Shown here: positions 6,975 through 9,900 of the stretch, one piece after another
Position numbering within the stretch: the stretch's first letter is position 1
Layout: each line of letters opens with the position of its first letter
DNA from: Xiphias gladius
Taxonomy: Eukaryota > Chordata > Actinopteri > Istiophoriformes > Xiphiidae
Direction of reading: 5' to 3'
DNA: 64,000 nucleotides
Assembly (NCBI RefSeq): GCF_016859285.1
Contig: NC_053417.1
Location: forward strand, 16,683,706-16,747,705
The notes under the pieces: generated by a model
Seen by the model: the letters and a program-made list of their open reading frames with translations, nothing else
Databases searched by the model: none
What the model was told of the DNA's origin: nothing
Translations under genes and position numbers: made by a program

Positions 6975-9900
6975 ATGCAAACACCAAGGACATGGATTGT
7001 GTTCATTTGTCTGAGTGGCCCAGTTTTATCAGGACTAAGCCTAAACTCTTGGCATGATATGGATGCATACTTTGAAACTTCTTCTGAGGCACCTGAATTA
7101 GAAACAGCAGCCATTCTTCCACCAAGAATTGATAAAGCAGTGACCCTGTTAGATACAAATGTTTCAAGTGCAACCCTTCCTGCTGGTAAGCTATTTTTTT
7201 TGTCTGCCTGCTCTTGGACAAAAATTTTTTTAATGACTGAAATAGTTTTAAGTTGTTCAATTCATACATTGGATTGAAAAATAAACGTTTTGAGTTGTTT
7301 ACATCTGTAGCTGCTTCCCCCCCCCCCTCTTCTGGTTTGTTTGGTGTCATCTCTGTGAAGAAGAGATTGAGGATCAGCGCCTACAGATGGAAGCAGAAGA
7401 GGAGATGGAGCAAAGAGTTGATTTCAGAAAGCCGGAGGCTGGTAGAAGAAGGAGGAGTGCCTGGGGGAGGAGGAAACATGCAGCTACAGTGGAGGCCACT
7501 GCATATAGAATGGTATGACTAGACAAACACCGAAGTCCACCGTATGAATACAGAAAATCCTAATTTCTTAACATCTCTTCACCCAGTTCATATTCTGCTC
7601 CAAGATTGTGTTTGTGTTCACCGATTTTCTCCTTGGTTGATAATGTTATCTTGCTTATTGTAGGCAGGGTTTGGGCGACCCCTGATGGGCTGGAGGAAGC
7701 GTGGAAAAGGAGAGCAGGAATCCAGCGCTCTCATGGCTGTACTTCGGGAACTTTATGCTGAGAAGAGGAGGCTGATGGTTAAAAAGAAATCACAGGAGGA
7801 GGAGGAGGAAGAAGAGGATGATGACGATGATGATGAAGAAGAGGAAGAGGAGGATGAAGAGGTTTCTTTTTTTTTGTTGGATAAATAAGACCATTGTTTT
7901 TCTTTAGTTCTTTGAACCACCAGGTTGAGTTATTGGAAAATTTTTCTGTCATATAATTGTTTTTTTTATTATCTTTATTTCAGGAAGAGGAAGAAGAAGA
8001 AGAGGAAGAAGAAGAAGAGGAGGGAGAAGAAGAAGAGGAGGAAGTAGAAGAGATAGAGGCAACTGAGCCTCCCACCAATCAAACAGAAACACAAAGCAAC
8101 TTTACGGAGTCTCCTCTTGGCGAGTGTCAGACTGCTGAAAGAGAAATCAGTTGCAGGGGCATCGGCATGACTCACCTGCCAATCCTGCACAACCTGGAGG
8201 CCACAAAGTTGGACGTGGCAGGTGTGTGTGTCATTGTTGTGGAAGTAGAGGCATCATACAAAATGAGCATGATTGTGGCTAGTGGGATGGTACAGAATAG
8301 AAGTGGATGTACTCATTAAGGTGGCCAGTAGCTCTAATTGCCACTTTGATACCACTAACCATATTTTATAGATATTTTTGTTTTTTTTGTCTGCCTGCTC
8401 TTGGACAAAAATTTTTTTAATGACTGAAATAGTTTTAAGTTGTTCAATTCATACATTGGATTGAAAAATAAACGTTTTGAGTTGTTTACATCTGTAGCTG
8501 CTTTCGCCCCCCCTCTTCTGGTTTGTTTGGTGTCATCTCTGTGAAGAAGAGATTGAGGATCAGCGCCTACAGATGGAAGCAGAAGAGGAGATGGAGCAAA
8601 GAGTTGATTTCAGAAAGCCGGAGGCTGGTAGAAGAAGGAGGAGTGCCTGGGGGAGGAGGAAACATGCAGCTACAGTGGAGGCCACTGCATATAGAATGGT
8701 ATGACTAGACAAACACCGAAGTCCACCGTATGAATACAGAAAATCCTAATTTCTCTTCACCCAGTTCATATTCTGCTCCAAGATTGTGTTTGTGTTCACC
8801 GATTTTCTCCTTGGTTGATAATGTTATCTTGCTTATTGTAGGCAGGGTTTGGGCGACCCCTGATGGGCTGGAGGAAGCGTGGAAAAGGAGAGCAGGAATC
8901 CAGCGCTCTCATGGCTGTACTTAGGGAACTTTATGCTGAGAAGAGGAGGCTGATGGTTAAAAAGAAATCACAGGAGGAGGAGGAGGAAGAAGAGGATGAT
9001 GACGATGATGATGAAGAAGAGGAAGAGGAGGATGAAGAGGTTTCTTTTTTATTGTTGGATAAATAAGACCATTGTTTTTCTTTAGTTCTTTGAACCACCA
9101 GGTTGAGTTATTGGAAAATTTTTCTGTCATATAATTGTTTTTTTTATTATCTTTATTTCAGGAAGAGGAAGAAGAAGAAGAGGAGGGAGAAGAAGAAGAG
9201 GAGGAAGTAGAAGAGATAGAGGCAACTGAGCCTCCCACCAATCAAACAGAAACACAAAGCAACTTTACGGAGTCTCCTCTTGGCGAGTGTCAGACTGCTG
9301 AAAGAGAAATCAGTTGCAGGGGCATCGGCATGACTCACCTGCCAATCCTGCACAACCTGGAGGCCACAAAGTTGGACGTGGCAGGTGTGTGTGTCATTGT
9401 TGTGGAAGTAGAGGCATCATACAAAATGAGCATGATTGTGGCTAGTGGGATGGTACAGAATAGAAGTGGATGTACTCATTAAGGTGGCCAGTAGCTCTAA
9501 TTGCCACTTTGATACCACTAACCATATTTTATAGATATTTTTGTTTTTTACATTTTTACATCTAGACGTGTTTATAGTTAGCTGTTATAATCACTTTCAT
9601 ATCTCACCAGCAGTATGTAGCATTTGTAAGGAAATACTATTTGTACTAGCGGATTATTAACTGAAAACTAGAGTGTTGTTCCACTTCCAACAAAGTTCAC
9701 TGACTGATTATATTATTTACATGAATGTCAAAACAAAAGTTCCAGAATAAATATGCCAACATGAAATTACCTCAGAGTCAAGTGAAGTTCAAGGGAAGTT
9801 CCTTATCATGCTCCTGTCAAAAGATTTTTATATACTTTTGCATACTGCATATACTACATCACATACCATACCTTGTGATTTATCTTTAAAGAGAACAACA

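What the first reader, a model, noticed from the sequence alone, without database searches (positions are those of the whole stretch)
7194..9549. In-frame tandem duplication of a three-exon acidic/LRR-cap module in the ECM2-like gene
Two near-identical 1.2-kb units each contain exons of 152, 198 and 238/223 nt. The module begins and ends in phase 1, so duplication keeps the frame and all splice sites of both copies are intact. With both copies the protein (806 aa) would carry two basic/acidic regions and two N-terminal LRR Cys caps, the first cap not followed by LRRs. Alternatively the sets could be spliced as alternatives. The near-identity of introns as well as exons means either a very recent event, gene conversion or an assembly duplicate.
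Basis: partly seen in the sequence, partly recalled or inferred. Interest (0 to 1): 0.75.

Follow-up and report, generated by a model that had tools for sequence, protein, structure and literature searches.

The report
Doubled exon module in swordfish gene
A swordfish gene for a secreted matrix protein carries what looks like a very recent, in-frame, head-to-tail doubling of three exons; the event is of an ordinary kind, could still be an assembly error, and may be trimmed away when the protein is processed.

Summary
Window 7194-8386 and 8381-9549 are tandem copies (1165 of 1193 columns identical, 4 mismatches, 3 indels). Each has three exons (152, 198, 238/223 nt) with GT-AG borders and phase 1 at both ends. 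Splicing both gives 806 aa, one copy 615 or 610 aa. The source is almost certainly swordfish: the last 367 aa equal the annotated Xiphias gladius ECM2 protein. The gene is an ECM2-like (class A) SLRP upstream of biglycan. None of the 11 relatives that show the basic part of the module has it twice; many other models are cut short and say nothing.

Identity runs to both breakpoints, which share T6 (0.36% of random breakpoint pairs reach 6): this favours a recent microhomology-mediated duplication. Against certainty: 4 mismatches equal what two swordfish alleles would show (expected 4.3), so a false assembly duplication remains possible (about 0.28). Nothing found supports mutually exclusive splicing.

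New point: each module carries a convertase-like site (R-X-K/R-R). A cut at the second would leave the same 508-aa chain as a copy-2-only gene, so the duplication may be nearly silent. New member of a known kind.

The parts
6975..7185 (+). Exon 1 of the ECM2-like gene: start codon, signal-peptide-like N-terminus (by eye), ends in phase 1
   Evidence: aligns with Thunnus albacares ECM2 residues 2-68 at 62.7% and Pholidichthys residues 1-59 at 45.9%
7194..8386 (+). Duplication unit, copy 1
8381..9549 (+). Duplication unit, copy 2 (overlaps copy 1 by shared T's)
8381..8388 (+). Junction of the two units in a run of 8 T; the outer breakpoints (T8 at 7194-7201, T6 at 9544-9549) share 6 bp
   Evidence: 0.36% of 100,000 random breakpoint pairs in the two introns reach 6 or more
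7361..7512 (+). Module copy 1, exon a (152 nt): basic region with convertase-like site RRRR-S
7664..7861 (+). Module copy 1, exon b (198 nt): basic stretch then acidic tract
7984..8221 (+). Module copy 1, exon c (238 nt): acidic tract and two-Cys LRR N-cap, not followed by LRRs if both modules are spliced in
8547..8698 (+). Module copy 2, exon a (152 nt), same protein sequence as copy 1 exon a
8842..9039 (+). Module copy 2, exon b (198 nt), one silent difference from copy 1
9162..9384 (+). Module copy 2, exon c (223 nt), 15 nt (5 Glu codons) shorter; its cap continues into the LRRs. The annotated swordfish protein starts at the Met of GMTHLP encoded here
9892..20997 (+). LRR exons of the ECM2-like gene: 9892-10007, 11766-11898, 11987-12144, 12357-12496, 18993-19319, 20823-20997 (stop)
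   Evidence: the product's last 367 aa equal the annotated swordfish protein

Best explanation
A genuine, young, in-frame tandem duplication of one three-exon module in a swordfish ECM2-like (class A SLRP) gene. SHOWN: the two copies in this assembly, near-identity to the breakpoints, T6 microhomology, phase 1 at both ends, GT-AG borders, an open 806-aa frame, and no second module in the relatives whose models reach it. INFERRED: a template switch or microhomology-mediated joining between T-runs in the two flanking introns copied the module; the spliceosome includes both copies by default, giving an 806-aa preprotein with two basic/acidic stretches and an orphan first N-cap. INFERRED, more weakly: a proprotein convertase (furin type) cuts after R-X-K/R-R in each module. 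The cut in module 2 leaves the 508-aa chain that a copy-2-only gene would give, while module 1 is released as a 196-aa fragment, so the duplication changes the propeptide more than the mature protein and is probably close to neutral, fixed or polymorphic.
For: Copies, differences and breakpoints. Exons, phases and frame. Microhomology of 6 or more in 0.36% of random breakpoint pairs. No N in the window, so no gap lies between the copies; false duplicates were most often separated by a gap (PMC9516828, passages). Species: 367 of 367 aa equal the Xiphias gladius protein. The basic region occurs once in each of the 11 of 120 relatives that match it and twice in the window protein; a cap profile matches 90 of 121 sequences, and only the window protein and P0048 (which looks like an ECM2-like/biglycan fused model) have two. 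R-X-K/R-R stands at the aligned place in 6 of the 6 relatives whose match covers it (P0005, P0038, P0027, P0021, P0032, P0002) and in both window copies. The chain after the second cut is identical to that of the copy-2-only protein. In the tuna orthologue most of the region before the cap has pLDDT under 50 (1-72, 96-140, 169-184, 186-226), with two helices at 73-96 and 140-169, while cap and LRRs are confident, so a second copy need not disturb the LRR domain.
Against: Four mismatches in 1169 bases is just what two alleles would show at the reported swordfish heterozygosity of 0.365% (expected 4.27). PMC9516828 also reports false duplicates joined without an assembly gap (passages). No reads, depth or RNA could be examined. 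The search of the source genome did not complete. No database protein with two modules was found (1012 candidates), but 23 of the 46 first-listed models start at the cap, so that says little. A shuffled module holds R-X-K/R-R in 47% of trials, and the site is absent at this place from the 8 otocephalan models scanned. In alignment A1 one further percomorph model, P0030, lies across the place without the site; its letters there resemble the swordfish exon read in another frame, so it may be a faulty model.
Confidence: 0.55

Rival explanations
1. Assembly artefact: the two alleles of a single-copy module were placed in series (a heterotype false duplication).
For: The number of substitutions (4) matches the expectation for two swordfish alleles (4.27). 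The two longer indels lie in a GAA repeat and an intron, where alleles often differ (general knowledge). False duplications, including false exon duplications on one scaffold, are documented in vertebrate assemblies, sometimes without an assembly gap (PMC9516828, passages). Two Oryzias melastigma records of the related gene (P0012, P0029) differ by 48 aa, with 45 aa exactly repeated in P0012.
Against: No gap between the copies. The unit is short (1.19 kb) with a clean junction on 6 bp of microhomology, uncommon for random breakpoints, although a homopolymer is also where an assembler may err. No other adjoining near-copy of this size is in the window's self-comparison.
Confidence: 0.28
2. The two exon sets are spliced as alternatives, so each protein carries one module.
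For: Each set alone keeps the frame (610 or 615 aa).
Against: Joint inclusion also keeps the frame, so nonsense-mediated decay would not enforce a choice. The intron between the sets is 325 nt and the six others in and beside the modules are 122-507 nt, too long for steric exclusion (general knowledge). Three exons per set would have to be chosen together.
Confidence: 0.05
3. An older duplication kept alike by gene conversion.
For: Near-identity of introns as well as exons.
Against: Identity runs to both breakpoints without a diverged fringe; no second module in the 11 relatives that show the basic region. No other billfish was available for comparison.
Confidence: 0.05
4. A real duplication that damages the gene: the 806-aa product misfolds or is retained because the orphan cap and LRR edge are exposed.
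For: In the tuna model the cap region is continuous with the LRR solenoid (strands at 237-239 and 258-260), and copy 1 of the cap lacks the next repeat.
Against: Most of the module before the cap is predicted with low confidence, as disorder would be, and the first copy could be cut off at the second convertase-like site. There is no frameshift or stop.
Confidence: 0.07

Closest known systems
Class A SLRPs (ECM2, ECMX, ECMZ; Ciona SLRP1), in particular the fish gene named si:dkey-32e6.6 / extracellular matrix protein 2
   Same: LRR domain, two-Cys N-cap, acidic stretch before the LRRs, position upstream of a class I SLRP (here biglycan) on the same strand; PMC2637281 describes ECM2-ASPN, ECMX-BGN and ECMZ-DCN pairs (passages)
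   Different: No VWC match; the N-terminal module is present twice; in the tree the gene falls in an acanthomorph-plus-salmonid clade apart from the ECM2/ECMX-type clade (midpoint root, 43 of 120 relatives chosen by me)
Tandem duplication of symmetrical phase 1-1 exon modules in extracellular proteins (exon shuffling; recalled, a paper search gave nothing to the point)
   Same: Phase 1 at both ends, in-frame insertion, splice borders kept
   Different: The unit is a mostly disordered, propeptide-like stretch plus an N-cap rather than a whole folded domain
False heterotype duplications in assemblies (PMC9516828, passages)
   Same: Copy divergence equals the heterozygosity of the species
   Different: No gap between copies; microhomology at the junction

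Membership tests
Class A SLRP (ECM2-like) | Sequence kinship with ECM2-family LRR domains | tested here: met
   100% to swordfish ECM2, 48-83% to the other 119 listed relatives; groups with acanthomorph ECM2-like proteins
Class A SLRP (ECM2-like) | Lies upstream of a class I SLRP gene | tested here: met
   Biglycan-like exons within 35694-42154, + strand; the hand-joined piece scores 477.6 bits to biglycan and 341.8 to decorin
Class A SLRP (ECM2-like) | Cys N-cap before the LRRs, as in the family's members | tested here: met
   C-X8-C found by a cap profile built here; below the Pfam LRRNT cut-off. PMC6293640 states a four-Cys cluster for ECM2/ECMX (passages), which is not seen here
Class A SLRP (ECM2-like) | LRRCE C-terminal cap | not tested
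   The C-terminus aligns with relatives, but no LRRCE model was run
ECM2 proper | N-terminal VWC domain | tested here: not met
   No VWC match in the 806-aa protein; many, not all, of the ECM2/ECMX-type relatives carry PF00093
False heterotype duplication (PMC9516828) | Gap between the copies | tested here: not met
   No N in the window
False heterotype duplication (PMC9516828) | Copy divergence like that of two alleles | tested here: met
   4 substitutions against 4.27 expected
False heterotype duplication (PMC9516828) | Half read depth, discordant linked reads, one-copy k-mers | not testable with these tools
   No reads available
Furin-type proprotein | R-X-K/R-R site at the same place in relatives | tested here: inconclusive
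   Present in 6 of 6 percomorph relatives whose match covers it; absent at this place from the 8 otocephalan models scanned and from P0030 in alignment A1; 47% of shuffles hold the pattern somewhere
Furin-type proprotein | Cleavage in the secretory pathway | not testable with these tools
   Needs expression and N-terminal sequencing

The most novel reading that the evidence does not exclude
A self-erasing duplication: because the copied module carries its own convertase site, the swordfish protein with two modules is cut at the second site, giving the ancestral mature matrix protein while releasing a new 196-aa secreted peptide (basic stretch, acidic stretch and a stray N-cap). The genome would tolerate, and could spread, a large in-frame duplication because processing hides it from selection.
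Probability: 0.17. Interest if true: 0.5.

Novelty: new member of a known kind. Interest (0 to 1): 0.3.

Why it matters
If real, it is a clean case of a symmetrical-phase module caught soon after duplication, with breakpoints, microhomology and both intron copies readable. It would let one ask whether propeptide processing shields a gene from an in-frame duplication. The annotated swordfish protein begins inside the second copy, so neither the module nor its doubling can be seen from that protein record. If false, it is a warning of a gap-free false exon duplication.

Tried and rejected
Search of the source genome for further copies: asked five times in the same form, never answered. Search for proteins with the N-terminal module: 3 hits among 1012 candidates, P0005 and P0038 with one module and P0004 a partial match; limited because many models of this clade are cut short. 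Of the 46 first-listed relatives, P0001-P0046, 23 start with a pattern taken here as the cap Met. Papers on the swordfish genome: no listing showed this locus; PMC10079183 cites swordfish short reads, which cannot be reached here; two swordfish transcriptome papers (PMC6517582, PMC9854923) were seen as listings only. No paper on furin cutting of ECM2 was evident in the listing (none opened for it). One search (symmetrical exons) gave nothing to the point. Gene conversion and mutually exclusive splicing were considered and set aside for the reasons given. A structure of the double protein was not requested, because a spliced sequence is not a direct translation of the window; the tuna orthologue was folded instead.

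Full report
What is there. The window (64,000 bases, no N, 41.9% GC) holds two head-to-tail copies of a 1.19-kb unit at 7194-8386 and 8381-9549. They align over 1193 columns with 4 mismatches and 24 gap columns in three indels. Two mismatches and a 1-bp indel lie in a C-run before the first module exon. The others are an 8-bp intronic indel, a silent CGG/AGG in exon b, a T/A in an intronic T-run and a 15-nt in-frame indel in the Glu tract. This is far beyond chance.

Gene model. Exon 1 is 6975-7185. The module exons are 7361-7512, 7664-7861, 7984-8221 and again 8547-8698, 8842-9039, 9162-9384. Six LRR exons follow, ending at 20997. All introns are GT-AG. The module starts and ends in phase 1. 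Both modules give 806 aa, copy 1 alone 615, copy 2 alone 610 and neither 419.

Species and gene. The last 367 aa equal the annotated Xiphias gladius 'extracellular matrix protein 2', so the window is almost certainly swordfish; which assembly is not known. That annotated protein begins at a Met inside the last module exon and so omits the N-terminal region; 23 of the 46 first-listed relatives start with the same kind of pattern. The upstream exons look like real coding sequence by conservation: exon 1 and the basic region align with Thunnus albacares (610 aa, one module) and Pholidichthys leucotaenia (645 aa, one module). Biglycan-like exons follow within 35694-42154 on the same strand (a hand-joined piece gives 477.6 bits to biglycan against 341.8 to decorin). 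This fits the class A/class I SLRP pairs described in PMC2637281 (ECM2-ASPN, ECMX-BGN, ECMZ-DCN; passages). No VWC domain was found. In a tree of 43 of the 120 relatives, chosen by me, plus the window, the gene falls in an acanthomorph-plus-salmonid clade apart from the ECM2/ECMX-type proteins (midpoint root). It may be the teleost gene called ECML in PMC6293640 (passages), but no ECML sequence was compared.

One module elsewhere. A cap profile built from 49 proteins matched 90 of 121 sequences (120 relatives plus the window protein). Only the window protein and P0048, which looks like a fused ECM2-like/biglycan model, had two matches. The basic region occurs twice in the window protein and once in each of the 11 relatives that matched it, several of them in part. 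The other models do not show the region, many because they start later, and say nothing about it. No other billfish was available.

How it arose. Identity continues to both breakpoints. The outer breakpoints share 6 T (T8 at 7194-7201, T6 at 9544-9549), and the junction has T8 at 8381-8388. Of 100,000 random breakpoint pairs in the two introns, 0.36% have 6 or more shared bases. This points to microhomology-mediated tandem duplication, though a homopolymer is also where an assembler could err. With the rate quoted for swordfish in PMC10079183 (1.2e-9, written there as per site per generation; passages), 1 to 4 substitutions correspond to 0.36-1.4 million units of that rate; this is rough.

Real or false. 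Swordfish heterozygosity is given as 0.365% (PMC10079183). Two alleles would differ by 4.27 substitutions over 1169 bases, and 4 are seen. This is the strongest evidence against a real duplication, and equally what a duplication born by unequal crossing-over between alleles would show. Against an artefact: no gap between the copies, whereas PMC9516828 reports gaps most often between false duplicates, though sometimes they are joined by sequence without read support; the same paper met a true allele-specific tandem duplication in one contig (passages). Depth and reads could not be examined. A related warning: two Oryzias melastigma records (P0012, P0029) differ by 48 aa, with 45 aa exactly repeated in P0012. 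I put the chance of a real duplication at about 0.7.

How it would work. Nothing found excludes joint splicing: the seven introns in and beside the modules are 122-507 nt, the frame stays open, and the splice sites of the two sets are almost alike. The default product is then an 806-aa preprotein. In the tuna orthologue's predicted structure (20 sequences, mean pLDDT 74.3) the N-terminal part is mostly of very low confidence with two helices, and cap plus LRRs are confident. By Foldseek the best E-value is to decorin and the best fit by target length among the rows shown is to biglycan (TM-score 0.90). A first cap without LRRs would thus sit in a long, probably disordered stretch.

Against this: the 8 otocephalan models scanned lack it at this place, 47% of shuffled modules contain the pattern somewhere, and P0030, which alignment A1 lays across the place, lacks it, though its letters resemble the swordfish exon in another frame. 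If a convertase cuts the second site, the mature chain is 508 aa and identical to that of the copy-2-only protein, with a 196-aa piece released from between the sites. This is inference from motif and conservation only; no cleavage predictor was run.

Verdict. An ordinary kind of event, well preserved, in a little-studied gene; real more likely than not; probably of small effect on the mature protein.

Noticed in passing
window 595-3099 (+): Transketolase-like exons upstream of the ECM2-like gene (Pfam Transketolase_N and Transket_pyr above cut-off).
   Followed up: partly
window 35694-42154 (+): Biglycan-like gene downstream of the ECM2-like gene.
   Followed up: partly
window 46505-46990 (+): Glycosyltransferase family 7 N-terminal region (Pfam, E 1.4e-30); B4GALT-like by recall.
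   Followed up: no
window 16951-17892 (-): Remnant with a weak reverse-transcriptase match (20.7 bits, below Pfam's cut-off of 29.6).
   Followed up: no
window 25748-26037 and 27225-27514: Direct repeat of 290 bp at 96.9%; partial inverted copies lie within 27717-27832. The stretch between has an open frame (26702-27097) that reads like a Tc1-type transposase by recall, without a Pfam match at E 0.01.
   Followed up: no
P0012 against P0029 (Oryzias melastigma): Two records of the related protein from one species differ by 48 aa; P0012 repeats 45 aa exactly (127-171 and 175-219), about one LRR exon: an allele, an assembly error or an annotation error.
   Followed up: partly
P0048 (Dallia pectoralis): Annotated protein that looks like an ECM2-like gene fused to biglycan, probably a model joining two neighbouring genes.
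   Followed up: no
P0001 and other listed relatives: 23 of the 46 first-listed relatives start with a pattern matching the cap Met just after the acidic tract, leaving out signal peptide and module; possibly a shared annotation fault at low-complexity exons.
   Followed up: partly
P0030 (Brachionichthys hirsutus): Its N-terminal letters resemble the swordfish module exon a read in another frame, so this model is probably faulty there.
   Followed up: partly
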